DNA of 64,000 nucleotides from Arenicola marina (Eukaryota; Annelida; Polychaeta; Arenicolidae), in the NCBI GenBank assembly GCA_964019135.1, contig OZ025253.1, positions 41,732,109 to 41,796,108 of the forward strand, in the 5' to 3' direction. Below, piece after piece: positions 8,326-55,479 of this stretch. The first letter of the stretch is position 1; each line of letters opens with the position of its first letter. The translations under genes and the position numbers were made by a program. The notes under the pieces were generated by a model, which did no database searches, was not told the origin of the DNA, and worked only from the letters and a program-made list of their open reading frames with translations.

Positions 8326-8667
8326 CTTAAATAGAAAACAATAAACTGGTTTAGACATTTTGTTTTCAAAAGAGAAAACATGTAGTTTACAGCAATAGCT
8401 CTAGACTGTAATTGTAAAGTGTGTCAGATGAATGATCTGATAAAACTCTATAACTTAAATAGGTCTAGTAAGCTTATTTTCGTTAATGTTTATTAAAGAT
8501 TTACTTTTAGGCCTATAAGCTTTATAGATATGTAGCTTGAGTCTTCTTACATTGTCAAGTAGATATTCATTTCGTAAATTAGGTTACTAATTTACAAGTA
8601 ACTTATGCAATATGTCAAGACTCAAGGTATTGTCTACAATAGTCAAGATGGAGAACCAATAAATATT

Positions 8668-16473: not shown

Positions 16474-16629
16474 TCGTAACAAATACTTTTAATGCATTCT
16501 TCTCTTCTGTTGGTTCGACAGCCTGTGATGGACTTCAAACTGAAGACCATCCCTCTTTTTCTCCATACCTCGGATCACCGGTTAATTCCAAAATGAATTT
16601 AAGCTTATAGCTAAAGCAACAGTAAAAAA

Positions 16630-24700: not shown

Positions 24701-25990
24701 AGACAGCCCTCTCCCACGGTGAGCCCTCCGGTCAAGGCAACCCTCCCCCATAATAAGCCATCCGGCCAAGGCAGCCCTCCCCACAGTGAGCCCTCCGGCC
24801 AAGGCAGCCCTACCCATAGTGACCCTCCGGCCAAGGCAGCCCTTCCCCATAGTAAGCCATCCGGCCAAGGCAGCCCTCCCCACAGTGAGCCTTCCGGCCA
24901 AGGCAGCCCTCCCCCATGGTGACCCCCTGGCCAAGGCAGCCCTCCCCCAAAGTGTGCCCTTTGGCCAAGGCGGCCCTCCCCATAGTAAGCCATCCGGCCA
25001 AGGCAGCCCTCCCCCATAGTGAACCCTCCGGCCAAGGCAGCCCTTCCCCATAGTAAACCAGCCGGCCAAGGTAGCCTCTCCCTTAATAAGCCCTCCGGCC
25101 AAGTCAGCCCTCTCCCATAGTAAGCCCTCCTGCCAAGGCAGCCCCCCCCCCCCATAGTGCGCCCTCCGACCAAGGCAGCCCTTCTCCATAGTGAACATTC
25201 CGGCCCAGGCAGCCCTCCCCCATAGTAGACGCTCCGGCCAAGGCAGCTGTCCCCCATAGTGAACCCTCCGGCCAAGGCAGCCCTCCGACATAGTGAGCCC
25301 TCCGGCCAAGGCAGCCCTTCCCCATAGTAAACCATCCGGCCAAGGCAGCCTCTCCCTTAATAAGCCCTCCGGCCAAGGCAGCCCTCTCCCATAGTAAGCC
25401 CTCCGGCCAAGGCAGCCCTCCCCCATAGTGAGCCCTCCGGCCAAGGCAGCCCTTCCCCATAGTGAACATTCCGGCCAAGGCAGCCCTCCCCCATAGTAAG
25501 CCCTTCGGCCAAGGCAGCTGTCCTCCATAGTAAGCCCTCCGGCCAAGGCAGCCCTCCCCCATAGTGAGCCCTCCGGCCAAGGCAGCCCTTCCCCATAGTG
25601 AACATTCCGGCCAAGGCAGCCCTCTCCCATAGTGAGCCCTCCGGCCAAGGCAGCCCTCCCCCATAGTGAGCCCTCCGGCCAAGGCAGCCCTTCCCCATAG
25701 TGAACATTCCGGCCAAGGCAGCCCTCCCCCATAGTGAGCCCTCCGGCCAAGGCAGCCCTTCCCCATAGTGAACATTCCGGCCAAGGCAGCCCTCCCCCAT
25801 AGTGAGCCCTCCGGCCAAGGCAGCCCTCTCCCATAGTAAGCCCTCCGGCCAAGGCAGCCCTTCCCCATAGTGAACATTCCGGCCAAAGCAGCCCTCCCCC
25901 ATAGTGAGCCCTCCGGCCAAGGCGGCCCTCCCCCATAGTGAGCCCGCCGGCCTAGGCGGCCCTCCCCCATAGTGAGCCTCAAGCCTGGCG
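21718..25990. repeat. 34-bp satellite array with higher-order duplications
   Basis: About 125 copies of a 34-bp unit with core CCTCCGGCCAAGGCAGCC and CCCCCATAGTGAG. The unit is itself two related 17-bp halves. Larger blocks are duplicated: a segment of 1037 bp (61 x 17) recurs in tandem, for example at 22681 and 23718, and another of 441 bp recurs at 22240 and 22681. Since 34 is not a multiple of three, frames cycle into a 34-residue repeat; the long minus-strand frames are not taken as genes. Confidence 0.95.
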
Positions 25991-26640
25991 AGATCGTCAC
26001 CCTTGCGAGCGCTTCATCCTACTCCTCCGGTCTGGCATAGCAAGCCTTCCACCCTAGCGAGCCCTCCACCCAAGCGGGCCCTCCACCCAAGCGAGCCCTC
26101 CACCCTAGCGAGCCCTCCAACCTAGCGAGCCCTCCACCCTAGCAAGCCCTGCACCCTAGCGAGCCCTCCACCCTAGCGAGCCCTCCACCCTAGCGAGCCC
26201 TCCACCCTAGCGAGCCCTCCACCCTAGCGAGCCCCCACCCTAGCGAGCCCTCCATCTTAGCGAGCCCTCCACCCTAGCGAGCCCTCCACCATAGCAAGCC
26301 TTCCACCCTAGCGAGCCCTCCACCCTAGCGAGCCCTCTACCCTAACGAGCCCCACACCCTAGCGAGCCCCCCACCCTAGCGAGCTTTTCGGCAGGGCGAA
26401 CTGTCCGTCCAGTTCTTCACCATAGCAAGCCCTCAGTCACAGTCTCTGTTAGTCCAAGCATGGCGAGCTTTCCACCCTATCAAACCTTCCACCCTAGCGA
26501 TCCCTCCACCCTAGCGAACCCTCCACCCTAGCGAGCCCTCCACCCTAGCGAGCCCTCCACCCTAGCGAGCCCTCCACCCTACCAAACTCTCCACCTTAGC
26601 GGCCCCTCCTGCCTAGAGAGCTTTCTGCCCTAGTGAACCC
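25991..26640. repeat. 17-bp satellite array
   Basis: Copies of CACCCTAGCGAGCCCTC (17 bp), contiguous with the 34-bp array and apparently the simpler form from which a 34-bp dimer could arise. Confidence 0.92.
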
Positions 26641-27025
26641 AAGCCCTACGGCTTAGCCGGCCTTCTACAGTAACTAGCCTTACGGCTTGGCGATCCCTCT
26701 ACCCTAGCAAGTCCTACAGCTTAACGGGCCCTCTACCCTAGCAAGCCTTACGGCTTAACGGGCCCTCTACAGTAGCAAGCCGTACGGCTTAGCGGGCCCT
26801 CTACAGTAGCAAGCCGTACGGCTTAGCGGCGCCTCTACCCTAGCAAGCCCTACGGCTTAGCGGGCCCTCTACAGTAGCAAGCCGTACGGCTTAGCGGGCC
26901 CTCTACAGTAGCAAGCCGTGTGGCTTAGCGGGCCCTCTGCCCTAGCAAGTCCTACGGCTTAGCGGGCCCTCTGCAGTAGCAAACCTTACGACTTAGCGGG
27001 CCCTCTACCCTAGCGAGTCCTCTAC
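26641..27025. repeat. Second 34-bp array variant
   Basis: About 11 copies of a 34-bp unit with cores CAGTAGCAAGCCGTACGG and CTTAGCGGGCCCT, again built from two 17-bp halves. Confidence 0.92.
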
Positions 27026-29480: not shown

Positions 29481-30228
29481 CGTAGGATGGAGTTTCAGGG
29501 CCAGCTCCCTCCAGGCCGGAGTGGGTTTCGGCTCTCTCTATGCCGGAGTGGGTTTCAGCCTTCTCCAGGCCGGAGTGAGTTTCGGCTCCCGCTAGGCCGG
29601 AGTGGGTTTCAGCTCCCTCGAGGCCGGAGTGGGTTTCAGCTCGCTCGAGGCCGGAGTGGGTTTCATATTCCTCTAGGCCGGAGTGAGTTTCAGCACCCTC
29701 CAGGCCGGAGTGAGTTTCAGCACCCTCCAGGCCGGAGTGGGTTTTATCTCTTTCCAGGCCGGAGTGGGTTTTATCTCTTTCCAGGCCGGAGTGGGTTTCA
29801 GCACCCTCCAGGCCGGAGTGGGTTTTATCTCTTTCCAGGCCGGAGTGGGTTTCAGCACCCTCCAGGCCGGAGTGGGTTTTATCTCTTTCCAGGCCGGAGT
29901 GGGTTTCAGCACCCTCCAGGCCGGAGTGGGTTTTATCGCTTTCCAGGCCGGAGTGGGTTTCAGCACCCTCCAGGCCGGAGTGGGTTTTATCTCTTTCCAG
30001 GCCGGAGTGGGTTTCAGCACCCTCCAGGCCGGAGTTGGTTTCATCTCTTTCCAGGCCAGAGTGGGTTTCAGCTCCCTCTTTGATGGACTGAGTTTGAGCT
30101 CTTTTTGTCTTGTCAACTACCCTTCTCTCTCCCATGTGGCTCAGATTTCTGTAACACACACCATCTTCAACCGTTATCCTCATTATCCTCACCATGTGCC
30201 ATGTATAATAATATGACAAGCACAGCAT
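29461..30228 (-). CDS. Possible repeat protein across the 27-bp array
   Basis: A minus-strand frame with an ATG at 30228 gives about 45 non-repeat residues, then hydrophilic 9-residue repeats (THSGLEGAE / THSGLERDK). Two plus-strand frames are also open across the array because 27 is a multiple of three, so openness proves nothing. In favour, the frame has a non-repeat N-terminal part and a polar composition. I rate it unlikely but not excluded. Confidence 0.2.
   Translation of the reverse strand: MLCLSYYYTWHMVRIMRITVEDGVCYRNLSHMGERRVVDKTKRAQTQSIKEGAETHSGLERDETNSGLEGAETHSGLERDKTHSGLEGAETHSGLESDKTHSGLEGAETHSGLERDKTHSGLEGAETHSGLERDKTHSGLEGAETHSGLERDKTHSGLERDKTHSGLEGAETHSGLEGAETHSGLEEYETHSGLERAETHSGLEGAETHSGLAGAETHSGLEKAETHSGIERAETHSGLEGAGPETPSYVLYCCY
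29490..30080. repeat. 27-bp minisatellite (54-bp higher-order unit)
   Basis: About 21 copies of a 27-bp unit with core CAGGCCGGAGTGGGTTT. Two unit types alternate in the central part, giving a 54-bp higher-order repeat. Confidence 0.94.
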
Positions 30229-31187: not shown

Positions 31188-31193
31188 AAATGA
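31188..31193. repeat. Target site duplication, left (AAATGA)
   Basis: AAATGA immediately before the element, repeated at 46990-46995 immediately after it. Six-base duplications are the mark of Polinton/Maverick integration. Confidence 0.75.
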
Positions 31194-31339
31194 ACTAGTG
31201 AGAGCTGAGGGATTAGCTACCCCCATGACCCCCTCACCCCCCCCCCCCCTGTGGTCGCGCTGTAGCGCGACCGAAAATTTTGAAATATCGATTTGAAAAT
31301 GCCGGTCACGAGTTAATGAGGTCATTAATTTTTGTCAAA

Positions 31340-31560
31340 AGTCTTTGTTTCCGTGCTATAGCACGGGGTATAATTAGCATAAATTACGATGTAAATAGCT
31401 AATTAAGCTGTCAACAAGGTTATTCATAATTGCTTGAAGTCTTTGTTTCCGCGTTATAGTACGGGGTATAAATAGTATAAATTAGTATGTAAATAGGTAT
31501 ATTCAACAAGGTTATTAATCATTGTTTGTCTATGTTCTCGTGCTATAGTACGAGTGAATG
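31340..31560. repeat. Subterminal repeats of the left arm
   Basis: Imperfect units of about 98 bp, each centred on a GTGCTATAGCAC-type palindrome followed by GGGGTATAATTAGC. The matching part of the right arm has one more full unit. Confidence 0.8.
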
Positions 31561-31975
31561 AAGTTGGTTGAAGTCTTCAATCTGCGATCAAGTATTATTA
31601 TGAATAGGTAATAGATGAACAAGTCATTTTGCTTTGATGAAACAGTAAATCATTTAATTGCTATAGATATCGCCATGTAAACTGTAAATTCTCGCGTTAC
31701 AGTACGATTAATCGTCAATGACACGTGTATATAATCAATGTAATCAGGCCATGTGAGATCCTATAAGCTGTGTAATATGTTTGTTTGTTTGTAAAAACCA
31801 TAGGATATGTTTCGAGTAAACCATATTAACGCAAATACAATCATCCATTTTGCAATTTTTTTATTCCTATATCACTACATGAATACCATTACCCGCTACA
31901 ACATCTATCGTGGTCAAAAAAAACTTAGTATCACAAAAATATACACCTTCATATCATATTATTATACATGACAAT

Positions 31976-32314
31976 TTAGACAATGGGTAAAGAGGTCTTG
32001 CACGCGGTTTGCATAAAACGCGGGGACTGCCGGCGAGTGATACGCGGAAAGTGAACAGATTGGAAATTATGAATATAGTTGTCATTGCACATGGTGTTTG
32101 GAGACCAATACTCTCGATAGATTCGTGACATGGAGTAATTTCGACATTTGAAATATAAGTAAAATAGACAGTATTCTCCGCATACATCTGTGCCAAGTGA
32201 CTGCCACACCGCTCTCATGGGTTGTTGAATAAAATATTCCAAGTGTTTAAGGTTCACATAGGCACGAATTGGTTTTCCTAGTGAGTCAAACATCTCAATT
32301 TTCCCCGATGACAC
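31976..32314 (-). pseudogene. Adenain-like cysteine protease piece, left arm
   Basis: The frame contains SLGTDVCGEYCLFYL. This resembles the Cys-nucleophile segment of adenovirus-type (C5) and related Ulp1-fold proteases carried by Polintons and adintoviruses, which cleave capsid precursors. Only the part around the catalytic Cys is recognised. Treated as a fossil part of the element. Confidence 0.5.
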
Positions 32315-32459
32315 TAAACTTTAAATGTCACACGTACGTATACTAATCACCAATTATATATATATATATATATTCATCTACACCAGTGTAACTTTCACCA
32401 TAATTTAGGATTGGTCATCCATAAATACATCAAATGTAACTTAGTGGATACATAAACAT

Positions 32460-33164
32460 TTAGGATAGATGTATCTTATCCAAACCTTTCGGGTAACATT
32501 CAACACAGTCAAAGTACCCCTCCTGATTTTGGTGAGATGACATACAATCAACCAACTCGGTGAGTTCCGGAACACACTTATCATGGATCGTGTTGAGATG
32601 GAACTTAAGTAAATTCCACTGCTTTAAATCGAGAGTAATTCCTTTTCGGGTCGGCACGGGCGTATCTTGTGTATCCGGCAACCAGTATTTTCGAATATCT
32701 AGAAACTGGCCACGGGGCAGGACCTCGGCCATCACCAAACCTCCGAGATGATATTTCCGTGGATTGGTGGTCTGTTGCAATTCTCGATCTATGGTGTTTG
32801 TCAATGTCTGCAACATCTTCCAGCGGGTTGTGATGAGATTGACACCCACTTTTGTAGGGTAATCACGGCCGTTTTCTTGACATACCCACTTTCTAATATC
32901 AAAGCGTAAAACGTCTTTGAAATACTGAACAGTAAAATAGACATTCTCTCCGATGCACTCTTGACAGCGTATATCGTGAGTTTGCTCGGAAGTACACTGC
33001 GTATTCTCCCATTTTCTTTTCTTGGTCAGCGGGATGAGTGGTAGCCGATTGGAGGGAGCGAAGTCCGCTGTTGTCTTGTGGGAAGTCATGTCGTTGTGGT
33101 GAAAAGATGGAGACCGCCCGTACATTATATTCACAAAGTCCCTCTCCACCTCCTCGTCATCCAC
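32460..33164 (-). CDS. Two-domain PC4-like protein, left arm
   Basis: The 234-codon frame has two PC4/p15-like segments: FDIRKW...PTKVGVNLITTRW at residues 88-115 and LDIRKYW...PTRKGITLDLKQW at residues 155-183. PC4 domains bind single-stranded DNA and act in transcription and replication. A CxxC pair (residues 67-70 and 220-223) lies outside the two domains and could bind zinc. The right-arm copy differs at only seven of these residues. In this element the protein may coat single-stranded DNA or activate late transcription; that role is inferred. Confidence 0.6.
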   Translation of the reverse strand: MDDEEVERDFVNIMYGRSPSFHHNDMTSHKTTADFAPSNRLPLIPLTKKRKWENTQCTSEQTHDIRCQECIGENVYFTVQYFKDVLRFDIRKWVCQENGRDYPTKVGVNLITTRWKMLQTLTNTIDRELQQTTNPRKYHLGGLVMAEVLPRGQFLDIRKYWLPDTQDTPVPTRKGITLDLKQWNLLKFHLNTIHDKCVPELTELVDCMSSHQNQEGYFDCVECYPKGLDKIHLS

Positions 33165-33311
33165 CCACTTGGGACGTGTCTGAACATGCTTTGGCGAGGT
33201 GTAAAAATAGCATCACGACTGACGTCATACATCGGCGTGGCTTTGTCATCTGTTTAAAGATAGACAGAGGGGCGTGGCCAACAGGCTTTGTACGCACGGG
33301 TAATCGCTGTA

Positions 33312-33415
33312 AATGAGCGATCAATCACTTTTTTAATCCCAACAACTCAAGCCCGCGTTATAATAAGACTGAGTCGCTTCACTACGTTTTATAATAATTG
33401 GTTCATGCACTACTG
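33312..33415 (-). promoter_or_regulatory. Promoter-like module, left arm copy
   Basis: Inverse copy of the module at 44707-44810, with TATAAAA (complement at 33387-33393) and CTCAAGCCCGCGTTATAATA. It lies just upstream of the left PC4 frame. Confidence 0.55.
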
Positions 33416-34500
33416 TGTGTGAATTGTGTGATTGATGTTAAAGGTCACAGAAAAGGGCCGTGGATGTTTTAAAACTCATCAAAATGCTACCTTTGTGAAA
33501 GAGCGGTGACTTTAAGGATTTGTCTGCGAGCGACAGATGTTTCGTGGTCTTTGTCTTGATGTGTAGAGTTGCAGCGACAATTATTTATTTTCGGTCGGTT
33601 ATTTTTTTAAATGCGCGTTTGAATTCACCGGTGGGAGGGCAGTTAGTCGAGCCCGCGGGCGCGCGGGCGCGCTGCACGGTGGGGGCGGGGCTTCGACCGA
33701 GACAAATATCGATTTTTTTTTCCAAGCCCCTCAAAACACAGCACCCCGCTGGCCGTCACGACCTACTGATTTTCAAAAGTTCGGGCGAGCCAGCGAGCCA
33801 GAGTCAGCGGAGCGTCATGTGGTTTTTGGCGGGGTATTGGCCGACGGTCTGTGTACGCACAAGTTTGGCAGTGTCGCTGTGATATGAACTTTGTGAAATA
33901 TCGGAAGGAATAATCACCTTAATTTTAGTTTCGGTTGTAACATTATTCAACTGTCGCCGCTGTAATAAGGATGCATCTATAAACGTTCGAACAAACAAGT
34001 CGTGGAGACAAGCGCCCGGTTGGCGTCCTGTTGTCGCGAGGGAGAAGAGTTATGACAGTTGTTTGATGAGTCAGTCTATTATTTCGATAGTAATAAGCGG
34101 GCTTTATGCTCTTCACCTCAGGTATTATTTATCTGCAAGCCATTAATACGTCGGCCGGAAAGGTCAATGGGTTAACCTTTTCAACAACCGCCTGTGGGCA
34201 TTTAATTATACCTTCCCCTCCTAGATAACTAGGCGTGGCAGCTGATTACTATGTGGTGGCAGTAAAATTCACTGTTGTATATGATACGAGGCGTCATTGT
34301 GTACTGATGGAAACATAAGAAGCTTGTGTTATAGGTCCACCCTTCCCCCTGCCCCCCTTTCTCTCCCCCATCTATTCACTGACGATTCTGAACACGTGAC
34401 TCCCATGCTACACCTGCCCTCTTCGTCAACGATGCAGTTTTAAAATGATAATGGAGTGAATGGTGACGTCATTGACATTTAGTCATCTGTTTGTTCAGGA

Positions 34501-34514
34501 CCTATATAAAACGG
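34501..34514 (+). promoter_or_regulatory. TATA-like box in left arm, pointing inward
   Basis: CCTATATAAAACGG, mirrored in the right arm at about 43596-43609. No recognised coding frame follows it, although frames of 90-100 codons are open. Confidence 0.35.
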
Positions 34515-36284
34515 GAGAGATGAGTTAATTGGTTGTTTCTTTATGTTGGCAACCCCTTGACCTCTGTAGCCGACGTTCTGTTTGCTTGCATATGCATCCA
34601 AAAGAAGGTAGGGAGGGTGAAGGATATAACATCAATCGCCTGAGTCATTGCTATACACGTTCTTGGGGAGTGTCTGTGGGTTTTTTATTGCATTGGAGTT
34701 ACCAATGTTACGAGCACCCCACATCCGACGGCACGTTTAAACGAGTTTGGGGAAAGAGCGACTGGCTCCCTCCACCTCCATACACCATACACTCACAATA
34801 TTCCTATTAGGTTATTTTGCTGTTACTCCGTCAAGCGAAAACTATTATGGTGCATGACCGCTTTTCTAGTTCATTAAAAGAAGCAGTTGCATTTGCTTGT
34901 GACATCTGCAACCAACGTCGCATTCATATAACTCATACACCGTTAAAGGAATTATTCTGTAAGTTTGAACATTGTTACTCGTTAAGTCAGTGTAAAGTAA
35001 CATATATGTTAAAAATGTATTGTATTGAACTTTATTTGTTTTTATTGCACTTTTAAAAGCAGCTAAAGTAAAAACACATACTAACATAAATTTTACCAAC
35101 AATAACCGTATCCATCCATGTCAAGGAACGTAGTCAAGGAACGTAGTCAACAATTAACTTGAGCGTAATTTAAATAACTCACAAATTTCATATGTCACCA
35201 CGTCACAACTCATTCGTAGGTTTCAACAAGACTTTAAACCATTTGCAAAAGTGATTATAAAAGTGAATGCATCAACTTTAAAAATGATATTTTACGTATT
35301 GTATGTATGAAGTATTCGTTTTCCGTCACGTGTTTATATATTTTTTAAACTATCAAGTGTTACAGTAACACAATAAGTTATGCATGTATCATATATTTGT
35401 GAAACATCCATTTACCTTATTGCAATACGTCTAGGTTTACACATACACTTACAACTATGCAACTAGTCTTGTAGAATGTCATGTTTCATAAAGTTAACAA
35501 GTTATTGAATCAACAGATTGACGCGTGTTACGCGTGCGTGTATCGCGAATGTGAACTGAATTAAAAGTCGTCATCACGTTAACGAATTAGGAAGTGAGTA
35601 TAAACACTGCCATGTAATTTTTAGTGAGTAGCATTTGCGGTAAAAGAACTTCGCTATTGAAATAGCGTTAGCAACAGGCAAGTACTAATTCTACACAATC
35701 ATGACAAGTTCTTAAATTTTATTTAGTGAACATTGCAATTCCGAAAACAACGATATTTGTGGTGACAACATATCTGCAATGAAGTAAGAGAGAAGTAATT
35801 AGACATAAAAAATAGCGAAGCCAACGTGATGTATGTGCGAATTTAATGAATTGAATTCACCGGTATAATCAGATACATTCTAAACTACGGTGCGTAGAGA
35901 AGTATTGAATAGACTCATGACTGCCAAGAGTTTATCAAATGAATAACATTTGGAACACAACACAATATATGGATAATATAAACCTAATACTTTTGATTAC
36001 AATAAAACTCACGCGAGTATTCTGAGAGAACATGTTGTAAACGGAATAAATCATCAGTTTGTAACCATACAAAGAGATGAATGAAACATATCATTTACTT
36101 TATCTCGTAACATACATTCTAAACTTAGAAAGAGGATCGTATTGAGTAGTTGTCATAGCAAACACTAACATAAACATAACGAATGAGTTATCTGTCTTTT
36201 TTGGTATATCTTGGTGCAATGTATAACGTATCTAACTCGTGTTTTCTCTCTGCGTAGAAGGTATGTCAAAACTGGGGGTATGTA

Positions 36285-36302
36285 TCCTTTTTTTTTTTTT
36301 TT
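36285..36302. repeat. Poly-T run
   Basis: A T run of about 18 bases. The matching position of the right arm has a shorter A run, so the tract has changed length since the arms parted. Confidence 0.7.
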
Positions 36303-38164
36303 ATACATCAAGAAGTTAAACAGATAGAATAGAATTCTCATGAGTTGTGATGTCAAGGACAATGAATCAGTATTCAGTTTGGTTTTATTACACATATCCC
36401 AAAACAGTTTTCTTACTCTTACTCAACCAGATTATGTAGGAATGTATGGTAATGTAATTTTTAGAACCCTTAACTTCCTACATGAATTGATACTTCTAGT
36501 ATCTAATTAATCTTACCTTAAGCTATCCTGAAAGAAATTTCAGGGTCCACTCGTCTCCTGCGAGAATGTAACAATATGTTTAGTTGATTTATAACATTTA
36601 GGTTTTATCTACATGAAACGAATGCTTATTTTTTATTTTTAAACTATTAACATTTGTACTGAGTTTAACTCATTTTACTTACCCCTCTCTTTCCTCTGGC
36701 GCACAGTAAACCGTTATACACTTACACCTATGACTAGTTACAAATGGAAGTATTAATAAAGTTAACAAGTTATTGAATCAACAGATTGACGCGTGTTACG
36801 CATGTGTATATCGCGAACATGAAACGTTTGATCCGCAAGTGCCATCACGTATGATATGTTAACTGGTTGGGTGGACACATGTGAAACCAAAAGGTAGAAT
36901 TCTGTCAGTTACATGCCGTCATCGAGTTTGTTACATTCCTGTAATTTGAAAGACAACGAAGAAGAAAGATGTCACTTTTTGTACTCAACATAACATCAAG
37001 TTTATACTTAATGTAACATGTGTGAAATAAATATCATGTCACATCTATGTACTCAATAGTCAACCGCAAAAGTAAAAAGCTGTAAGTATTGTGTGTGTGT
37101 ATTCACTGTAACATATGTCTGTGGATAGTAATCATTTGCATACGATTTTACTTATTGTAGATGACACAACGATGAATAACGTGTTCATGCTAGATATGTA
37201 AAAACATGCACCTCCGTTGAACGAACGGTGTACGAGAAAATTAAATGACTTGTAAATAATATAGATGTGATCCGTACTACACATGGGTCACAATTGACAT
37301 GATCGTTTGATAGAACAAATATCGGTCTTGTCTTTTTCAAGTGAAGTAAATCGGGTTTGCAGACTGTTAAGAAAGTAACCGAGTGCGTAATACAATATAT
37401 ATATTTAATGAAGTAATATTTTTGGGAAAAGAGTCGTTATATAGTTTCGCTGTATGTTAACATACTTGAACACAAGAAAACGGTAACAAAAGTTAATGAA
37501 TGATTGAATGCGAATATTTTCTTTGATATGTTTTGGATGAATTAGTTAACATTAATGCTACTGACTAACAACAACAACCACGGGAACCACCATAACCATA
37601 ATATCGCCAACTGTTTGAGTCAAAGGACAAAGTGTGCATGTGAAAACTTGTTTTATAAATGTAATGGTAATACCAAAGAAGTCTATACATCTCCAATACG
37701 ACATGAGTCACGATTAATGTTTTGAAGCAGTGTTTTTATATTAAATCGAGTTCACGTAAGCACAGTCAGCAGTTTTGATTATATGGTTATCAATGTGTTT
37801 CCATTTGTATATGTATATCGCATCAGTCAGTCGGTAAACAACGTGGACTGTAAAAAATCACACCAGAAAAGGGTGGATGACAAACTTTCAGGAAAAGGAT
37901 ATGTTTGTAAGTTAACTTCTGAAGCGTGGTGAGCTGTATCGGACAATGCGGCAGCCCTCGACAGAGCACTGAATGTGATAAACCTGCGAAGAACTTACAC
38001 CCTCGCAAGATTTCTGTTGGTTGACTGCTGCATTCGAGCAGAGTATGCGTAAATAAATATAGGTGTTACGATATTACTGCGTTACGTTAAGGGGGTGGGG
38101 GGTGAAGAAATACGATGGATTTCAGATTAAATACCGTTTATTAACATCAAGAATATATAGTTTA

Positions 38165-38206
<42 letters not shown>

Positions 38207-38214
38207 TAAAATGA

Positions 38215-38838
38215 TTATATATATGGATCCAGCGGAGTATCCAATTGAATAAGTTGCATTAAAATATCGTCTTCAGAGCACAGTGGAGGATATGGGGACG
38301 GCGATCTAGGCGCCGCAGTTCCGGGTGCACCTGGGCGATTTCTTATAAAGATCCGTTGTGGTTCGTCCTCTTCATCCGACGAAATAGTGATTACTTCTTG
38401 TCGGCGCAGGACTCGCCCGATCGGTATCTCCAGTTGTGTGTTTTCGCCTCGCCGCAATAAAGTTGGAGATGGCGTCGGCGAGGGCATCCTACTTTCAATA
38501 GGGAGGCGGCGACCTCCCTCGTAGGCAAGACGGATGGCTGCCGGGAACTGGTCTGGAGCTGGCGTCGGCGTGGGTATGCTACTTTCGATGGGGAGGCGGC
38601 GACCTCCCTCGTAGGCCAGACGGATGGCTGCCGTGAACTGCTCTGGCCGCAGGATGAGGAAGGGCGGCTGGATTTGTGCAATTTGCTGTGGTTGTCCAGT
38701 TGACAAACCGATTCCGGGGAATTGTTCGAGTGGACACGGCTGGTGATATTGACCGTCTTGGTCATCCATGCCTGTGTATGCACCGTTACTGTAGCTAAAC
38801 ATACCGGACCCGGTGAACCAATTGTTGATTGGTGGCAC
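38215..38838 (-). CDS. Pro-rich protein with internal repeats and SIM-like motif
   Basis: The 207-codon frame carries a duplicated block, QFxAAIRLAYEGGRRLPIES, at residues 67-86 and 97-116. Pro/Thr/Ser-rich spacers follow. An acidic motif, VITISSDEEDE, at residues 149-159 matches the SUMO-interaction pattern of hydrophobic residues followed by Ser and acidic residues. The rest is disordered-looking. I recognise no family. It may act on host SUMO pathways or be a scaffold; both are guesses. Confidence 0.45.
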   Translation of the reverse strand: MPPINNWFTGSGMFSYSNGAYTGMDDQDGQYHQPCPLEQFPGIGLSTGQPQQIAQIQPPFLILRPEQFTAAIRLAYEGGRRLPIESSIPTPTPAPDQFPAAIRLAYEGGRRLPIESRMPSPTPSPTLLRRGENTQLEIPIGRVLRRQEVITISSDEEDEPQRIFIRNRPGAPGTAAPRSPSPYPPLCSEDDILMQLIQLDTPLDPYI

Positions 38839-38908
38839 TTCTTGACAGCGAACACGAACTATTTACGTTGTGCTATTTAACCAATATGACGTGAAGTGCA
38901 GCACAGAG

Positions 38909-39256
38909 CTAAAAATCGCACTGACCACAGGTACGATAGTAGTGGTTCTGTTCCCACCACTGTTTTTTACCCTGGGTCAACGCTCTTTCTCGCTCTAGAA
39001 CTGAACACTTACAATGCCAGAGCGCCCATTGAGAGGCACTACTATATGGTTTTTTCGAGCACCGAAATAGATGACCAGACTGTCTGGCCGGTGTGTTTCT
39101 GACAATAGCGTTACACCATCGACAATAAAAATACGGCTCACCTGGATCGATGACGTTTGTTTTCAAACCGTCGCACTTGATACAGAACCAGCTGGATGGC
39201 AGCTCTTCCGGTGGTGGGGGTAGATATTGTCGAACAGCGGCGGTACTGTCTGTCAT
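38909..39256 (-). CDS. Zinc-ribbon-like protein of the element centre
   Basis: A 115-residue frame with an ATG at 39256-39254 and G at -3. It has CIKC (residues 25-28) and CRWC (45-48), a spacing suited to a zinc ribbon, and further Cys pairs (HCKC at 81-84, CGQC at 110-113). No family recognised. It is upstream of and in line with the SIM-like frame, so both may share a transcript. Confidence 0.45.
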   Translation of the reverse strand: MTDSTAAVRQYLPPPPEELPSSWFCIKCDGLKTNVIDPGEPYFYCRWCNAIVRNTPARQSGHLFRCSKKPYSSASQWALWHCKCSVLERERALTQGKKQWWEQNHYYRTCGQCDF

Positions 39257-39490
39257 ATCTTCTTATTTTCGTTCTTCGTGCGTTTCGTGTAACTAGCGGT
39301 ATCATCAGACAAATTTTCAAGTTGTCCTGACTCCAAAATCCGGGGGCCCTTATGTACACCCACAACCACCTACGCCCCCCTGGAAGAGCACACCCAGTAA
39401 TGGCTTTGTCTCACCTCCCCCGGTCTTGTGCAGGGCGTTCTGCCGGGAGAGGGTGAGAGGGGACGACAGACGGGCAGTTTTTTGTGTTGA

Positions 39491-39626
39491 AGAGGTTAAC
39501 CAATCCACCTCCCTGTCCGACTTAATAATAACAATGTTGAACGACCGTTTTTGACTTTACCAACCTTCTGCATTGTTCAGGGCAATCTAGCGGGAGAGGT
39601 TGTTTATGTTAAAGAGGTTAACCAAT
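39491..39626 (+). promoter_or_regulatory. Repeated AGAGGTTAACCAAT motif (two copies)
   Basis: AGAGGTTAACCAAT at 39491-39504 and 39613-39626, each preceded by a similar GGGAGAGG-containing stretch. Related copies (GAGGTTAACCCAT) lie in the right arm at 43929-43942 and in inverse in the left arm near 34167-34180. It could be a late-promoter or origin element. Confidence 0.4.
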
Positions 39627-39796
39627 GCACTTTCTGGTCAATAAAATCTTATGCCAAATGTTCATTTGCAATGCAGACAACTGTATTACTCTATTTCATA
39701 GTTCACCGCACGTTGATCCATAACTTAAAGATAATTGCAGTCATCTGGTCATCATCTCTACAGCTGCTCGAGCTTGTATTGCACTGTATTGCATCA

Positions 39797-39905
39797 ATCC
39801 GCGAACAAGTTATTATAAAACGCAGTGAAGCGACTCAGTCGCATTATAACACGAGCTTGAGGGTTGTCGGGGTTAATAGAGTAATTGGTCGCAGGCTCAT
39901 TTACA
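39797..39905 (+). promoter_or_regulatory. Promoter-like module, centre copy
   Basis: Diverged copy of the arm module: TTATTATAAAACGCAGTGAA, then GCGACTCAGTC, then GAGCTTGAGGGTTGTCGG. TATAAAA is at 39814-39820. The presence of the same module at three sites in one element supports a regulatory role. Confidence 0.5.
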
Positions 39906-42900
39906 GTGATTATCTCCACCTACGGGGCAGATGACAGAAGGGGGGGGGGTGAAGATATAGTGAGTATGTGGGAAGGGGAGGGGGTGAGAGGGCAGGTGGT
40001 TCACGATGGACGTGATAGGGGGCGTGGAGTAGGCGTGAGATGCGGTGACCTTGGCGTCACCGAAGCCTAACGGGGGGCCGCCTACATCCCAACTCAAATT
40101 TACGGTTGCCGCCCGTCCACGACCGTCCACTGACACTTTGCAGGCGTTTCGATAGAGGGTGTTAGCCGCCGGGGAATGAATTTACAGTTTAACCGAGAAA
40201 TCACCCAGGTTCAACAGACACACTAAATAAATATCACTAAACATGATTTCAGAATTTGTGTAGATCCATACGGTGCGATCCGCCCAACGATACTTTTCGC
40301 ACTCATCAGATTATAATTTACAATACCTTTTATATGTTGAATCACTATAGTTTGTTAAATATACTTTACATCACCTTTTTAGCAAGGTTCTACATATAGA
40401 TTACTACAACACCATCAATAGTGAGTTATTGGATTGTTCATTTGATGTTTAACTTCACAGAAATCAACAAACATTATACATAAATGTTAATATTTTACTA
40501 CAACTAGATCTATCATCATTACATAAAACAGACCTAGTACGTAATGTGAGCGATAACTGAAAACACATCACATTGTATGTTTGTCTTTAAACTAAACAGT
40601 CACGTAGCTGTTGACGCATTCAATCATTCATTAACTTTTGTTACCGTTTTCTTGTGTTCAAGTATGTTAACATACAGCGAAACTATATAACGACTCTTTT
40701 CCCAAAAATATTACTTCATTAAATATATATATTGTATTACGCACTCGGTTACTTTCTTAACAGTCTGCAAACCCGATTTACTTCACTTGAAAAAGACAAG
40801 ACCGATATTTGTTCTATCAAACGATCATGTCAATTGTGACACATGTGTAGTACGGATCACATCTATATTATTTACAAGTCATTTAATTTTCTCGTACACC
40901 GTTCGTTCAACGGAGGTGTATGTTTTTATATATCTAGCATGAACACGTTATTCATCGTTGTGTCATCTACAATAAGTAAAATCGTATGCAAATGATTACT
41001 ATCCACAGACATATGTTACAGTGAATACACACACACAATACTTACAGCTTTTTACTTTTGCGGTGGACTATTGAGTACATAGATGTGACATGATATTTAT
41101 TTCACACATGTTACATTAAGTATAAACTTGATGTTATGTTGAATACAAAAAGTGACATCTTTCTTCTTCGTTGTCTTTCAAATTACACGAATGTAACAAA
41201 CTCGATGACGGCATGTAACTTACAGAATTCTACCTTTTGGTTTCACATGTGTCCACCAAACCAGTTAACATATCATACGTGATGGCACTTGCGGATCAAA
41301 CGTTTCATGTTCGCGATATACACATGCGTAACACGCGTCAATCTGTTGACTCAATAACTTGTTAACTTTATTAATACTTCCATTTGTAACTAGTCATAGG
41401 TGTAAGTGTATAACGGTTTACTGTGCGCCAGAGGAAAGAGAGTGGTAAGTAGAATGAGTTAAACTCAGTACAAATGTTAATAGTTTAAAAATAAAAAATA
41501 AGAATTCGTTTCATGTAGATAAAACCTAAATGTTATAAATCAACTAAACATATTGTTACATTCTCGCAGGAGACGAGTGGACCCTGAAATTTCTTTCAGG
41601 ATAGCTTAAGGTAAGATTAATTAGATACTAGAAGTATCAATTCATGTAGGAAGTTAAGGGTTCTAAAAATTACATTACCATACATTCCTACATAATCTGG
41701 TTGAGTAAGAGTAAGAAAACTGTTTTGGGATATGTGTAATCAAACCAAACTGAATACTGATTCATTGTCCTTGACATCACAACTCAAGAGAATTCTATTC
41801 TATCTGTTTAACTTCTTGATGTATAAAAAAAAAAGATGATACATACTCCCAGTTTTGACATACCTTCTACGCAGAGAGAAAACACGAGTTAGATACGTTA
41901 TACATTGCACCAAGATATACCAAAAAAGACAGATAACTCATTCGTTATGTTTATGTTAGTGTTTGCTATGACAACTACTTAATACGATCCTCTTTCTAAG
42001 TTTAGAATGTATGTTACGAGATAAAGTAAATGATATGTTTCATTCATCTCTTTGTATGGTTACAAACTGATGATTTATTCCGTTTACAACATGTTCTCTC
42101 AGAATACCCGCGTGAGTTTTATTGTAATCAAAATATTAGGTTTATATTATCCATATATTGTGTTATGTTCCAAATGTTATTCATTTGATAAACTCTTGGC
42201 AGTCATGAGTCTATTCAATACTTCTCTACGCACCGTAGTTTAGAATGTATCTGATTATACCGGTGAATTCAATTCATTAAATTCGCACATACATCACGTT
42301 GGCTTCGCTATTTTTTATGTCTAATTACTTCTCTCTTACTTCATTGCAGATATGTTGTCACCACAAATATCGTTGTTTTTGGAATTGCAATGTTCACTAA
42401 ATAAAATTTAAGAACTTGTCATGATTGTGTGGAATTAGTACTTGCCTGTTGCTAACGCTATTTCAATAGCGAAGTTCTTTTACCGCAAATGCTACTCACT
42501 AAAAATTACATGGCAGTGTTTATACTCACTTCCTAATTCGTTAACGTGATGACGACTTTTAATTCAGTTCACATTCGCGATACACGCACGCGTAACACGC
42601 GTCAATCTGTTGATTCAATAACTTGTTAACTTTATGAAACATGACATTCTACAAGACTAGTTGCATAGTTGTAAGTGTATGTGTAAACCTAGACGTATTG
42701 CAATAAGGTAAATGGATGTTTCACAAATATATGATACATGCATAACTTATTGTGTTACTGTAACACTTGATAGTTTAAAAAATATATAAACACGTGACGG
42801 AAAACGAATACTTCATACATACAATACGTAAAATATCATTTTTAAAGTTGATGCATTCACTTTTATAATCACTTTTGCAAATGGTTTAATGTCTTGTTGA

Positions 42901-44706
42901 AACCTACGAATGAGTTGTGACGTGGTGACATATGAAATTTGTGAGTTATTTAAATTACGCTAAAGTTAATTGTTGACTACGTTCCTTGACATGGATGGAT
43001 ACGGTTATTGTTGGTAAAATTTATGTTAGTATGTGTTTTTACTTTAGCTGCTTTTAAAAGTGCAATAAAAACAAATAAAGTTCAATACAATACATTTTTA
43101 ACATATATGTTACTTTACACTGACTTAACGAGTAACAATGTTCAAACTTACAGAATAATTCCTTTAACGGTGTATGAGTTATATGAATGCGACGTTGGTT
43201 GCAGATGTCACAAGCAAATGCAACTGCTTCTTTTAATGAACTAGAAAAGCGGTCATGCACCATAATAGTTTTCACTTGACGGAGTAACAGCAAACTAACC
43301 TAATAGGAATATTGTGAGTGTATGGTGTATGGAGGTGGAGGGAGCCAGTCGCTCTTTCCCCAAACTCGTTTAAACGTGCCGTCGGATGTGGGGTGCTCGT
43401 AACATTGGTAACTCCAATGCAATAAAAAACCCACAGACACTCCCCAAGAACGTGTATAGCAATGACATAGGCGATTGATGTTATATCCTTCACCCTCCCT
43501 ACCTTCTTTTGGATGCATATGCAAGCAAACAGAACGTCGGCTACAGAGGTCAAGGGGTTGCCAACATAAAGAAACAACCAATTAACTCATCTCTCCCGTT
43601 TTATATAGGTCCTGAACAAACAGATGACTAAATGTCAATGACGTCACCATTCACTCCATTATGATTTTAAAACTGCATCCTTGACGAAGAGGGCAGGTGT
43701 AGCATGGGAGTCACGTGTTCAGAATCGTCAGTGAATAGATGGGGGAGAGAAAGGGGGCAGGGGGAAGGGTGGACCTATAACACAAGCTTCTTATGTTTCC
43801 ATCAGTACACAATGACGCCTCGTGTCATATACAACAGTGAATTTTACTGCCACCACATAGTAACCAGCTGCCACGCCTAGTTATCTAGGAGGGGAAGGTA
43901 TAATGAAATACCCACGGGTGGTTGTTAAAGAGGTTAACCCATTGACCTTTCCGGCCGACGTACTAATGGCTTGCAGATAAATAATACCTGAGGTGAAGAG
44001 CATAAAGCCCGCTTATTACTATCGAAATAATAGACTGACTCATCAAACAACTGTCATAACTCTTCTCCCTCGCGACAAAAGGACGCCAACCGGGCGCTTG
44101 TCTCCACGACTTGTTTGTTCGAACGTTTATAGATGCATCCTTATTACATCGGCGACAGTTGAATAATGTTACAACCGAAACTAAAATTAAGGTGATTATT
44201 CCTTCCGATATTTCACAATATATCACAGCGACACTCCCAAACTTGTGCGTACACAGACCGTCGGCCAATACCCCGCCAAAAACCACATGACGCTCCACTG
44301 ACTCTGGCTCGCTGGCTCGCCCGAACTTTTGAAAATCAGTAGGTCGTGACGGCCAGCGGGTGCTGTGTTTTGAGGGGCTTGGAAAAAAAAAATCGATATT
44401 TGTCTCGGTCGAAGCCCCGCCCCCACCGTGCAGCGCGCCCGCGCGCCCGCGGGCTCGACTCACTGCCCTCCCACCGGTGAATTCAAACGCGCATTTAAAA
44501 AAATAACCGACCGAAAATAAATAATTGTCGCTGCAACTCTACACATCAAGACAAAGACCACGAAACATCTGTCGCTCGCAGACAAGTCCTTAAAGTCACC
44601 GCTCTTTCACAAAGGTAGCATTTTGATGAGTTTTAAAACATCCACGGCCCTTTTCTGTGACCTTTAACATCAATCACACAATTCACACACAGTAGTGCAT
44701 GAACCA

Positions 44707-44810
44707 ATTATTATAAAACGTAGTGAAGCGACTCAGTCTTATTATAACGCGGGCTTGAGTTGTTGGGATTAAAAAAGTGATTGATCGCTCATTTACAGCG
44801 ATTACCCGTG
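44707..44810 (+). promoter_or_regulatory. Promoter-like module upstream of the right PC4 frame
   Basis: TATAAAA at 44712-44718 is followed by GTAGTGAAGCGACTCAGTC and GCGGGCTTGAGTTG. The PC4 frame opens about 175 bp downstream. Confidence 0.55.
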
Positions 44811-44907
44811 CGTACAAAGCCCGTTGGCCACGCCCCTCTGTCTATCTTTAAACAGATGACAAAGCCACGCCGATGTATGACGTCAGTCGTGATGCTATTT
44901 TTACACC

Positions 44908-45675
44908 TTGCCAAAGCATGTTCAGACACGTCCCAAGTGGGTGGATGACGAGGAGGTGGAGAGGGACTTTGTGAATATAATGTACGGGCGGTCTCCATCT
45001 TTTCACCACAACGACATGACTTCCCACAAGACAACAGCGGGCTTCGCTATCTCCAATCGGCTACCACTCATCCCGCTGGCCAAGAAAAGAAAATGGGAGA
45101 ATACGCAGTGTACTTCCGAGAAAACTCACGATATACGCTGTCAAGAGTGCATCGGAGAGAATGTCTATTTAACTGTTCAGTATTTCAAAGACGTTTTACG
45201 CTTTGATATTAGAAAGTGGGTATGTCAAGAAAACGGCCGTGATTACCCTACAAAAGTGGGTGTCAATCTCATCACAGCCCGCTGGAAGATGTTGCAGACA
45301 TTGACAAACACCATAGATCGAGAATTGCAACAGACCACCAATCCACGGAAATATCATCTCGGAGGTTTGGTGATGGCCGAGGTCCTGCCCCGTGGCCAGT
45401 TTCTAGATATTCGAAAATACTGGTTGCCGGATACACAAGATACGCCCGTGCCGACCCGAAAAGGAATTACTCTCGATTTAAAGCAGTGGAATTTACTTAA
45501 GTTCCATCTCAACACGATCCATGATACGTGTGTTCCGGAACTCACCGAGTTGGTTGATTGTATGTCATCTCACCAAAATCAGGAGGGGTACTTTGACTGT
45601 GTTGAATGTTACCCGAAAGGTTTGGATAAGATACATCTATCCTACATGTTTATGTATCCACTAAGTTACATTTGA
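44908..45675 (+). CDS. Two-domain PC4-like protein, right arm
   Basis: Same architecture as the left-arm copy: two DIRK-type PC4 segments with PTKxGxxL and QW/RW endings, and CxxC pairs at each side. The frame is about 255 codons long. Conservation of an open frame in both arms fits a protein that was recently useful, or arms kept alike by gene conversion. Confidence 0.6.
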   Translation: MPKHVQTRPKWVDDEEVERDFVNIMYGRSPSFHHNDMTSHKTTAGFAISNRLPLIPLAKKRKWENTQCTSEKTHDIRCQECIGENVYLTVQYFKDVLRFDIRKWVCQENGRDYPTKVGVNLITARWKMLQTLTNTIDRELQQTTNPRKYHLGGLVMAEVLPRGQFLDIRKYWLPDTQDTPVPTRKGITLDLKQWNLLKFHLNTIHDTCVPELTELVDCMSSHQNQEGYFDCVECYPKGLDKIHLSYMFMYPLSYI

Positions 45676-45792
45676 TGTATTTATGGATGACCAATCCTGA
45701 ATTATGGTGAAAGTTACACTGGTGTAGATGAATATATATATATATATATATAATTGGTGATTAGTATACGTACGTGTGACATTTAAAGTTTA

Positions 45793-45993
45793 GTGTCATC
45801 GGGGAAAATTGAGATGTTTGACTCACTAGGAAAACCAATTCGTGCCTATGTGAACCTTAAACACTTGGAATATTTTATTCAACAACCCATGAGAGCGGTG
45901 TGGCAGTCACTTGGCACAGATGTATGCGGAGAATACTGTCTATTTTACTTATATTTCAAATGTCGAAATTACTCCATGTCACGAATATATTGA
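45793..45993 (+). pseudogene. Adenain-like cysteine protease piece, right arm
   Basis: Carries the same SLGTDVCGEYC segment as the left-arm piece and lies between the PC4 frame and the element end. Treated as a fossil part. Confidence 0.5.
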
Positions 45994-46559
45994 GAGTATT
46001 GGTCTCCAAACACCATGTGCAATGACAACTATATTCATAATTTCCAATCTGTTCACTTTCCGCGTATCACTCGCCGGCAGTCCCCGCGTTTTATGCAAAC
46101 CGCGTGCAAGACCTCTTTACCCATTGTCTAAATTGTCATGTATAATAATATGATATGAAGGTGTATATTTTTGTGATACTAAGTTCTTTTTTGACCACGA
46201 TAGATGTTGTAGCGGGTAATGGTATTCATGTAGTGATATAGGAATACAAAAATTGCAAAATGGATGATTGTATTTGCGTTAATATGGTTTACTCGAAACA
46301 TATCCTATGGTTTTTACAAACAAACAAACATATTACACAGCTTATAGGATCTCACATGGCCTGATTACATTGATTATATACACGTGTCATTGACGATTAA
46401 TCGTACTGTAACGCGAGAATATACAGTTTACATGGCGATATCTATAGCGATTAAATGATTTACTGTTCCATCAAAGCACAATGACTTGTTCATCTATTAC
46501 CTATTCATAATAGTACTTGATCGCAGATTGAAGACTTCAACCAACTTCATTCACTCGTA

Positions 46560-46865
46560 CTATAGCACGAGAACATAGACAAACAATGATTAATAACCTT
46601 GTTGAATATACCTATTTACATACTAATTTATACTATTTATACCCCGTACTATAACGCGGAAACAAAGACTTCAAGCAATTATGAATAACCTTGTTGACAG
46701 CTTAATTAGCTATTTACATCGTAATTTATGCTAATTATACCCCGTACTATAACGCGGAAACAAAGACTTCAAGCAATTATGAATAACCTTGTTGACAGCT
46801 TAATTAGCTATTTACATCGTAATTTATGCTAATTATACCCCGTGCTATAGCACGGAAACAAAGAC
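46560..46865. repeat. Subterminal repeats of the right arm
   Basis: Units begin with ACCCCGT at about 46641, 46739 and 46837 (period 98), with GTGCTATAGCAC-type palindromes. Two neighbouring units are almost identical. Confidence 0.85.
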
Positions 46866-46989
46866 TTTTGACAAAAATTAATGACCTCATTAACTCGTGA
46901 CCGGCATTTTCAAATCGATATTTCAAAAACCACAGGGGGGTGGGGGTGAGGGGGTCATGTGGGTAGCTAATCCCTCAGCTCTCACTACT

Positions 46990-46995
46990 AAATGA
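46990..46995. repeat. Target site duplication, right (AAATGA)
   Basis: Pairs with 31188-31193. Confidence 0.75.
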
Positions 46996-51949: not shown

Positions 51950-52289
51950 AGTGCAAACTCAGATTCACAATCCATACTTTCACGTTGTTCTCCTAGATCC
52001 ACAATCCCCACTTTCATAGTGTACGCTTAGATCTACAATCCCCACTTTCACAGTGTACGCTCAGATCAACAATCACGACTTTCACAGTATACGCTCAGAT
52101 CAATAATCCCGACTTTCACAGTGTACGCTCAGATCAGCAATCCAGACTTTCAAAGTGTACGCTCCGATTCACAGTCCCGACTTTCACACTGTAAGCTCTG
52201 ATCCACAATCCCGACTTTCACAGTGTACGCTTAGATCCACAATCCCGACTTTCACAGTGTACGCTCAGATCAACTATCACGACTTTCAC
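51950..52289. repeat. 34-bp tandem monomers upstream of the L1-like ORF1
   Basis: About ten imperfect units with core CCCGACTTTCACAGTGTACG and CTCAGATCAACAATC. The array ends 137 bp before the first in-frame ATG of the L1-like ORF1, the position of promoter monomers in the 5' UTR of some LINEs such as mouse L1. Confidence 0.9.
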
Positions 52290-52425
52290 AGTATATACAC
52301 TTCTGGTGCCGGTGCCAACCGATAAGGTAGTAAACAAGCTCTCGATATTAGTCGAAATTATACAGAAGCGGCTTCCTGGCGAAGCTTTACAATTCCAGAA
52401 ACAAGTGAACAAATACGCAGAGAAG

Positions 52426-53359
52426 ATGGCAGATGTGTGGCAGCAAGCCAGGAAGAAGAGAAAGCAGCGAAATAGTGCAGAAAGTAGCGGGACGGATACT
52501 CCAGAAACAAAGAAGCCATTTTCTTCCCGGCCGGCAACACCTGCACGCCGCCCAGAAATCAGTGAAGCGTCACGCTTCGATCTGCTCACAGAGGAGGAGG
52601 GGGCCTTACCGAGCGACCAAGAGGGAGTCCAAAACCTGTTCACAACTCTTGTGGCTCTGGTCACAGAGATGCGGAGCGACGTCAAAGACATTAAAAAGGC
52701 TCAGTTGGATATGCAATCACAACTCGCCGGCATGGACATACACCTGGCCGAAATGGATGACAAGCTGAAGCTCTGCACAATGGCTATCGATGTACTCAGC
52801 ACCCGGCAAGAAGAGCTAAGCGACCAACAAGAACAGATGAAGTCAATGATAGACAAAGAGAACAAGGCAACAACCGAACGAATGAAACACCTTGAAATTA
52901 ATGCCGCTCGACAGGACGAGCAATCACGCCGCAACAACGTAATCTTCTACGGCATACCAGAAGGTACAAACGAATCCTGGGAACAGAGCGAAGCGGCGCC
53001 GCGACAAGCTATGAAGGATAAGCTGAACATACCTGACGCTGACGACAATAACAACTGGGAGATTGAAAGGGCCCACCGACTAGGCAAACGGCAAGAGAAT
53101 CGATCACGACCAATGATTGTGAGATTCTTAAGATGGAAAAACAAGGAACAATTAAGTCATGGAGAAAGCAAGGTCTCTACCCAAAACTTCGGAAGTGAAA
53201 CTCAGCGAGGACTTCAGTAAACGTGTCCGTGAAATCCGTAGAATGCTGAACCCGAAAATGAAAGCCGCGAAAGAACAAGACAAACGCGCCAGTCTCCGCT
53301 TCGACAAGCTACACATCGACAACCACGTGTTCTCTGTTGTTCCTTTAAAGAACTGCTGA
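52426..53359 (+). pseudogene. L1-like ORF1 protein with a frameshift
   Basis: The ATG at 52426 is in strong context (GAAGATGGC). The frame (to 53220) encodes a basic N-terminus (ARKKRKQRN), a long coiled coil, and an RRM with NNVIFYGIPEGT and RPMIVRFLRWKNKE. The last part continues in another frame to 53359 (SEDFSKRVREIRRMLNP, KLHIDNHVFSVV), the C-terminal domain of L1 ORF1p. One frame change lies near 53150-53165. ORF1p is an RNA chaperone that trimerises and coats LINE RNA. No ORF2 follows, so the element is a fragment. Confidence 0.8.
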
Positions 53360-55465: not shown

Positions 55466-55479
55466 GAGGATGTGTGCTT

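What the first reader, a model, noticed from the sequence alone, without database searches (positions are those of the whole stretch)
31194..46989. Polinton-like element that is mostly terminal inverted repeat
The sequence shows a 15.8-kb unit with AAATGA duplicated at both outer borders and arms of about 6.3 kb, leaving only 3.1 kb unique. Typical Polintons have arms of hundreds of bases to about a kilobase. Here the arms carry coding frames, so the genes are doubled. This may be a distinct, reduced lineage that relies on a full relative for movement. The family call rests on target-duplication length, the AG tip and the protease piece.
Basis: partly seen in the sequence, partly recalled or inferred. 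Interest (0 to 1): 0.85.

Follow-up and report, generated by a model that had tools for sequence, protein, structure and literature searches.

The report
Polinton-like element, mostly inverted arms
A 15.8-kb insertion in a eukaryotic genome looks like a crippled virus-like jumping element (Polinton/adintovirus type) whose two ends are a 6.3-kb stretch and its mirror copy, which suggests that it lost one end and rebuilt it by copying the other.

Summary
Arms 31194-37512 and 40615-46989 are inverted copies (74 substitutions in 6273 ungapped columns, 11 indels). They enclose 3102 bp of unshared sequence and are bordered by exact AAATGA duplications. Arms make up 80% of the element. The right tip is AGTAGT, an end motif reported for vertebrate Mavericks; the left tip differs by one base. 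Each arm carries a two-domain PC4 ORF (PF02229, E about 2e-15) and an adenain-family protease piece (profile E 5.6e-22; best viral fold match an adintovirus adenain) without its histidine-bearing N-terminal third. No polymerase, integrase, ATPase or capsid gene was detected. Best reading: a non-autonomous Polinton/adintovirus-derived element formed when one end was lost and regenerated by copying about 6.3 kb from the other, then inserted by a relative's enzymes. A milder precedent is in print: truncated virophage elements with regenerated TIRs. A separate lineage is not shown: the host genome could not be searched, and the only near relative found is a 97%-identical PC4 protein on a 1.2-kb contig. 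Novelty: new variant of a known kind.

The parts
31188..31193 (.). left target-site duplication AAATGA
   Evidence: identical 6-mer at both borders; chance equality 0.00045 in this window
46990..46995 (.). right target-site duplication AAATGA
31194..37512 (+). left arm (6319 bp), tip ACTAGTGAGAG
40615..46989 (-). right arm (6375 bp), inverted copy of the left arm, tip AGTAGTGAGAG
   Evidence: (AGT)2 end motif as in PMC8097293
37513..40614 (.). unshared middle, 3102 bp, not palindromic apart from a short AT repeat
31339..31552 (+). 98-bp tandem repeats near the left tip
46612..46867 (-). 98-bp tandem repeats near the right tip, one unit more than on the left
32463..33212 (-). PC4 ORF of the left arm, 250 aa stop to stop, two PC4 domains
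   Evidence: PF02229 E 2.8e-15; longest frame in 200 shuffles of the arm 169 aa
44893..45672 (+). PC4 ORF of the right arm, 260 aa stop to stop, two PC4 domains
   Evidence: PF02229 E 1.9e-15; human PC4 structure 1pcf E 7.7e-05
31979..32320 (-). adenain-type protease piece, left arm, lacking the N-terminal third with the conserved His
   Evidence: profile E 5.6e-22, profile positions 61-169 of 173
45787..45990 (+). adenain-type protease piece, right arm, ended by an in-frame stop
   Evidence: profile E 1.7e-15
45994..46128 (+). remaining C-terminal protease frame after that stop, right arm
   Evidence: profile E 0.016
33301..33404 (-). 5' region of the left PC4 gene with TATA-like stretches
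44701..44804 (+). 5' region of the right PC4 gene
39803..39912 (+). diverged (82%) copy of the PC4 5' region inside the unshared middle
38218..38862 (-). 215-aa frame of the middle with an internal 90-bp tandem duplication, no convincing family match
   Evidence: no Pfam match at E up to 1; weak, meaningless matches in PHROGs (E 0.26) and NCBIfam (E 0.053, far below cut-off); longest of 200 shuffles 213 aa, so only just above chance
38912..39262 (-). 117-aa Cys-rich frame of the middle, no family match
   Evidence: none in Pfam, PHROGs or NCBIfam at E up to 1

Best explanation
A single integrated, non-autonomous element derived from a Polinton/adintovirus-type linear DNA element. Shown: one insertion unit with a 6-bp TSD, AGT-type tips (one mismatch at the left), 6.3-kb inverted arms of 98.8% identity, a PC4 gene and a broken adenain gene in each arm, and no detected replication or capsid gene. 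Inferred: in an ancestor replicating as a linear, protein-primed molecule, one end was lost. It was then rebuilt by copying about 6.3 kb from the other end, for example by strand switching or panhandle pairing through the short original TIR. This gave a molecule with an origin and integration site at both ends and doubled arm genes. A full relative's polymerase and integrase acted in trans and it was inserted with the TSD. After insertion the arms drifted apart without visible constraint.
For: Matching TSDs mean both arms went in as one unit. The right tip AGTAGT and the 6-bp TSD are those reported for Mavericks (PMC8097293, passages). The protease piece is adenain-type: profile E 5.6e-22; 29 of 38 members of its alignment match PF00770 at E up to 0.01; the top viral fold match of 19 is an adintovirus adenain, probability 0.99, E 0.043; its relative P0002 matches the ASFV protease S273R at E 0.0016. 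The His-bearing third is missing from both arms and not found elsewhere in the window by the profile, so it was probably lost before the arms were duplicated. Sharp inner ends and a 226-column identical run fit one copying event. Between the PC4 copies 8 codons differ (9 nucleotides), none synonymous, and against P0001 the residue changes split 3 left, 4 right, 1 P0001, as expected if both arms were equal at insertion. [quoted passage not shown]
Against: No second copy with these termini and no full-length relative were seen: the own-genome search did not complete, and five viral-contig scans and one genome-contig scan gave none. The regeneration step has no intermediate. The left tip departs from AG by one base. 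The window's protease piece has no Pfam match of its own and its model matched nothing useful in the PDB. Substitutions between arms are unevenly spread (chi-square 25.8, 11 df), which may mean gene conversion. That PC4 is a Polinton gene rests on its position alone.
Confidence: 0.6

Rival explanations
1. A chromosomal rearrangement after insertion: an ordinary or truncated element, or two elements in opposite orientation, became a large inverted repeat by recombination in the host chromosome.
For: Only one copy is in hand, and tail-to-tail copies can arise in repeat-rich DNA (general knowledge). The middle carries a diverged copy of the PC4 5' region, which could be a remnant of another element.
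Against: Two independent insertions would have different outer TSDs; here they are identical. The inversion would have to end exactly at the element tip.
Confidence: 0.17
2. An assembly artefact: the inverted right arm is a false join of the second haplotype or of a collapsed repeat.
For: About 1.2% divergence is in the range of allelic difference in many outbred invertebrates (recalled, not tested). TIRs and repeats occasionally caused assembly problems with EMALEs (PMC8547959, passage).
Against: The right arm reaches an exact TSD and an independent right flank. The sequence beyond the two inner ends differs and the middle is not palindromic, whereas a fold-back artefact would mirror the middle too. 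The arms differ by 11 indels, one a 98-bp repeat unit.
Confidence: 0.13
3. A lineage that always has giant arms: the long TIR is inherited and functional, for example doubling PC4 dosage or aiding panhandle replication, and copies multiply as helper-dependent satellites.
For: PC4 frames are open in both arms and in P0001 from another contig.
Against: PC4 differences between the arms are all non-synonymous (8 codons, 0 synonymous), which gives no sign of selection after insertion. No second giant-arm copy was seen.
Confidence: 0.1

Closest known systems
Polinton/Maverick elements (vertebrate Mavericks of PMC8097293, passages)
   Same: 6-bp TSD, AGT-type tip at one end, size within 12.7-24.6 kb, a protease gene
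   Different: TIR 6.3 kb against 46-1447 bp (mean 402); no polymerase, integrase, ATPase or capsid genes detected; PC4 gene present
Adintoviruses (animal adintovirus adenain)
   Same: adenain is the top viral fold match of the protease piece
   Different: incomplete protease, no other adintovirus gene detected; the defining paper was not held
Truncated EMALE virophages with regenerated TIRs (PMC8547959, passages)
   Same: integrated virus-like elements that lost genes yet have TIRs at both ends
   Different: EMALE TIRs are 0.2-2.3 kb; the host is a flagellate; here the arms are 80% of the element
Adenovirus symmetric recombinants (Ad12 SYREC; recalled, from no call; one search found nothing in point)
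   Same: one viral end duplicated in inverted orientation at both ends of a defective linear genome
   Different: packaged viral DNA, short duplicated end, host DNA in the middle
PC4/p15 single-stranded-DNA-binding coactivator (PF02229)
   Same: two PC4 domains by profile
   Different: tandem domains in one mobile-element ORF; role unknown

Membership tests
Polinton/Maverick, autonomous | 6-bp target-site duplication | tested here: met
   AAATGA on both sides
Polinton/Maverick, autonomous | TIRs with (AGT)2 or (AG)3 end motif | tested here: inconclusive
   right end AGTAGT matches, left end ACTAGT one mismatch
Polinton/Maverick, autonomous | protein-primed DNA polymerase B | tested here: not met
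   no Pfam match at E up to 0.1 among 61 frames of 50 aa or more from the left arm and middle; short or very diverged frames could be missed
Polinton/Maverick, autonomous | retrovirus-type integrase | tested here: not met
   same scan
Polinton/Maverick, autonomous | adenain/Ulp1-type protease | tested here: inconclusive
   family clear by profile, gene incomplete in both arms
Polinton/Maverick, autonomous | packaging ATPase and capsid proteins | tested here: not met
   same scan
Non-autonomous derivative of a Polinton | same termini as a full-length element in the same genome | not testable with these tools
   own-genome search did not complete (17 requests)
Adintovirus | adenain plus polymerase, integrase and capsid set | tested here: not met
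   only the adenain piece was found
PC4/p15 family (PF02229) | PC4 domain above the curated cut-off | tested here: met
   56 and 56.5 bits against a cut-off of 25

The most novel reading that the evidence does not exclude
A helper-dependent satellite lineage of Polintons that has shed the replication and capsid genes, keeps a double-PC4 single-strand-binding protein encoded at both ends, and replicates through giant inverted arms that can pair as a panhandle.
Probability: 0.12. Interest if true: 0.75.

Novelty: new variant of a known kind. Interest (0 to 1): 0.45.

Why it matters
It would be a direct sequence record of how protein-primed linear elements rebuild a lost end, and how defective or satellite forms of Polintons and adintoviruses arise. 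It also ties a PC4-type protein to a Polinton-like element. In the held library no paper holds Polinton, 'terminal inverted repeats' and PC4 together, or adintovirus and PC4 together; Polinton with PC4 alone was not searched.

Tried and rejected
Relatives by protein in IMG/VR: five scans gave no confirmed locus. The genome-contig scan with P0001 gave none. tblastn of the PC4 protein and of P0054 against phages: no match at E 0.01. Rfam at gathering scores and tRNA: none. The PC4 structure model was poor (mean pLDDT 38) and was not searched. Against my reading: the fold search of the protease piece in the PDB gave nothing below E 5.7; the BFVD match is top of 19 but its E-value is 0.043; Pfam gave no match for the window's protease piece itself and its PDB sequence search only an unrelated match at E 0.15, so the family rests on relatives. 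P0002 itself matches Pfam only weakly (Peptidase_C48, E 0.0017, below the cut-off). PHROGs gave a match for the PC4 frame (phrog_4053, E 4.9e-08).

Papers: ten searches. No paper: Polinton + 'terminal inverted repeats' + PC4, adintovirus + PC4 (18), at least three of Polinton, 'transcriptional coactivator', 'single-stranded DNA-binding', adenain (40), Maverick + Polinton + 'kb terminal inverted repeats' (46), six wordings of non-autonomous, defective or truncated Polinton/Maverick (80). One search (adenovirus, symmetric recombinant, inverted repeat, left terminus; at least two) found 485, 20 listed, nothing in point in the listing. One search found one paper, Dfam (PMC7805219), not in point in its passages. 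Searches gave listings from which papers were chosen. Passages only were read of PMC8097293, PMC8547959, PMC12220804, PMC11071296, PMC11071308, PMC10294476, PMC8363768, PMC7805219 and PMC10175614. No paper was read whole. The 2021 adintovirus paper was not held.

Held weaker, not excluded: two separate insertions or a later rearrangement (identical outer TSDs speak against it) and a fold-back assembly artefact (the middle is not palindromic). A substitution count of 102 was dropped because that alignment ran past the inner ends; the trimmed count is 74. The profile used 101 of the 120 listed relatives, those of 140-215 aa; 19 were dropped by length. One search found 136 proteins, P0002 included, 120 listed. 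One search aligned 37 of the 120 with the window piece. Searches were given 61 of the 64 frames found: two that reach across the left border and one near the left tip (31229-31399) were left out. Right-arm frames were not scanned as a set; two of them were given to family searches (44893-45675, 43963-44538).
Full report
What is there. The unit runs from 31194 to 46989 (15796 bp). BLASTN of the window with itself pairs 31339-37512 with 46769-40615 inverted, 98.46% over 6178 columns. With the tips, the arms are 6319 and 6375 bp and make up 80% of the unit. Trimmed at the inner ends they differ at 74 of 6273 ungapped columns (JC 0.0119) and by 11 indels. Differences are somewhat clustered (chi-square 25.8 on 11 df), with 13 in the tip-proximal 500 columns; the innermost 226 columns are identical. 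AAATGA flanks both sides; two random 6-mers of the window are equal in 0.00045 of draws. The right tip is AGTAGTGAGAG and the left tip ACTAGTGAGAG. Near each tip lie 98-bp tandem repeats, one unit fewer on the left.

Why it is one insertion. Two insertions would carry different TSDs. A fold-back assembly artefact would be expected to mirror the middle, but the 3102-bp middle is not palindromic (only a short AT repeat pairs with itself), and the two inner junctions lead into different sequence. No reads were available, so this is inference from the assembled sequence.

Genes. Each arm has a stop-free frame with two PC4 domains (PF02229, E 2.8e-15 and 1.9e-15; human PC4 structure 1pcf, E 7.7e-05). 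The 250-aa left frame exceeds the longest of 200 shuffles (169 aa). Between the arms 8 codons (9 nucleotides) differ and none is synonymous. With about 21% synonymous sites, no synonymous change among 9 is unremarkable without selection, so there is no sign of constraint after insertion. A third sequence, P0001 (97% identical over 86% of the query, on a 1223-bp contig), splits the residue differences 3 left, 4 right, 1 P0001. This is what equal arms at insertion followed by independent drift would give. P0001 equals neither arm, so at least one more copy, allele or related sequence exists.

Protease. The 114-aa frame 31979-32320 found one relative directly (P0002, 35% identity). P0002 matches the ASFV protease S273R in the PDB at E 0.0016. 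A two-sequence alignment then reached 136 proteins, P0002 included, 120 listed. A profile of 101 of them finds the left piece at E 5.6e-22 over positions 61-169 of 173. It finds the right piece in two frames (1.7e-15 and 0.016) split by a stop; the next frame of the window has E 1.7. In the alignment the Gly-x-His-Trp block of relatives lies in the missing part, while the FDS and CG-YC blocks are kept; that this His and the Cys are catalytic is recalled from adenovirus protease. Of 38 alignment members, 29 match PF00770, adenovirus endoprotease, at E up to 0.01; the window piece does not by itself. The model of the piece (pLDDT 75) matches first an adenain of a box turtle adintovirus (probability 0.99, E 0.043, TM 0.57), but nothing useful in the PDB. 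Both arms share the truncation, so it most likely preceded their duplication.

What is missing. Of 61 frames of at least 50 aa from the left arm and middle, only PC4 matches Pfam convincingly; the other six matching families have E 0.025 or worse. No polymerase B, integrase, ATPase or capsid protein was seen. Shorter or much diverged frames would escape. The middle holds two frames without convincing relatives in the libraries searched (38218-38862, 38912-39262); the first is only just longer than the longest of 200 shuffles (215 against 213 aa). The middle also holds a diverged copy (82%) of the PC4 5' region at 39803-39912, which suggests a repeated control region or an older copy of the same gene start.

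Comparison. Intact vertebrate Mavericks have TIRs of 46-1447 bp, mean 402, and element sizes of 12.7-24.6 kb; (AGT)2 or (AG)3 end motifs and 6-bp TSDs are used to recognise them (PMC8097293, passages). EMALE virophages have TIRs of 0.2-2.3 kb (PMC8547959, passages). Cryptophyte Polinton-like viruses are described with TIRs of hundreds to thousands of base pairs (PMC12220804, passages), so long arms as such are not without parallel. [quoted passage not shown] Duplicated ends in defective adenovirus DNA are recalled from general knowledge and come from no call.

Mechanism and limits. The best-supported account is end loss followed by regeneration from the other end in a protein-primed linear molecule, integration in trans, then drift. 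Shown: structure, TSD, gene content and truncation. Inferred: loss of one end, copying, and help from a relative. It does not pass as an autonomous Polinton, since polymerase and integrase were tested and not found; it has Polinton-type borders and is filed as a probable non-autonomous derivative. Whether it is a lineage or a single accident cannot be told, because the own-genome search did not complete (17 requests) and the collections searched gave no further copy. The host species is not identified.

Noticed in passing
39803-39912 (+): A diverged copy of the PC4 gene's 5' region lies in the unshared middle, in the orientation of the right arm's PC4 gene.
   Followed up: partly
39485-39529, 39607-39651, 43923-43967: A short motif with TGTTRAAGAGGTTAACC recurs three times on the + strand, twice in the middle and once in the right arm (family D6).
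   Followed up: no
35485-35555 and 36753-36823 (and inverted in the right arm): A 71-nt direct repeat, 92% alike, lies within each arm about 1.27 kb apart.
   Followed up: no
15090-17677 (+): Pieces of a non-LTR retroelement: endonuclease-like (E 0.00043, below the curated cut-off) and reverse transcriptase (RVT_1, E 1.5e-27) frames.
   Followed up: partly
6563-8423 (-): Two overlapping long frames (403 and 291 aa) in GC-rich DNA, without a match at E 0.01 in Pfam; NCBIfam (E up to 1) gave none, and the PDB search of the 291-aa frame nothing below E 0.25.
   Followed up: partly
21719-26770, 55474-60526 and 29502-30078: Large tandem-repeat arrays on both sides of the element, giving long but probably meaningless open frames.
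   Followed up: no
52195-53220 (+): A 341-aa frame that by eye resembles a retroelement ORF1 coiled-coil protein (recalled); no Pfam match at E 0.01, only weak NCBIfam matches from E 0.017 up.
   Followed up: no
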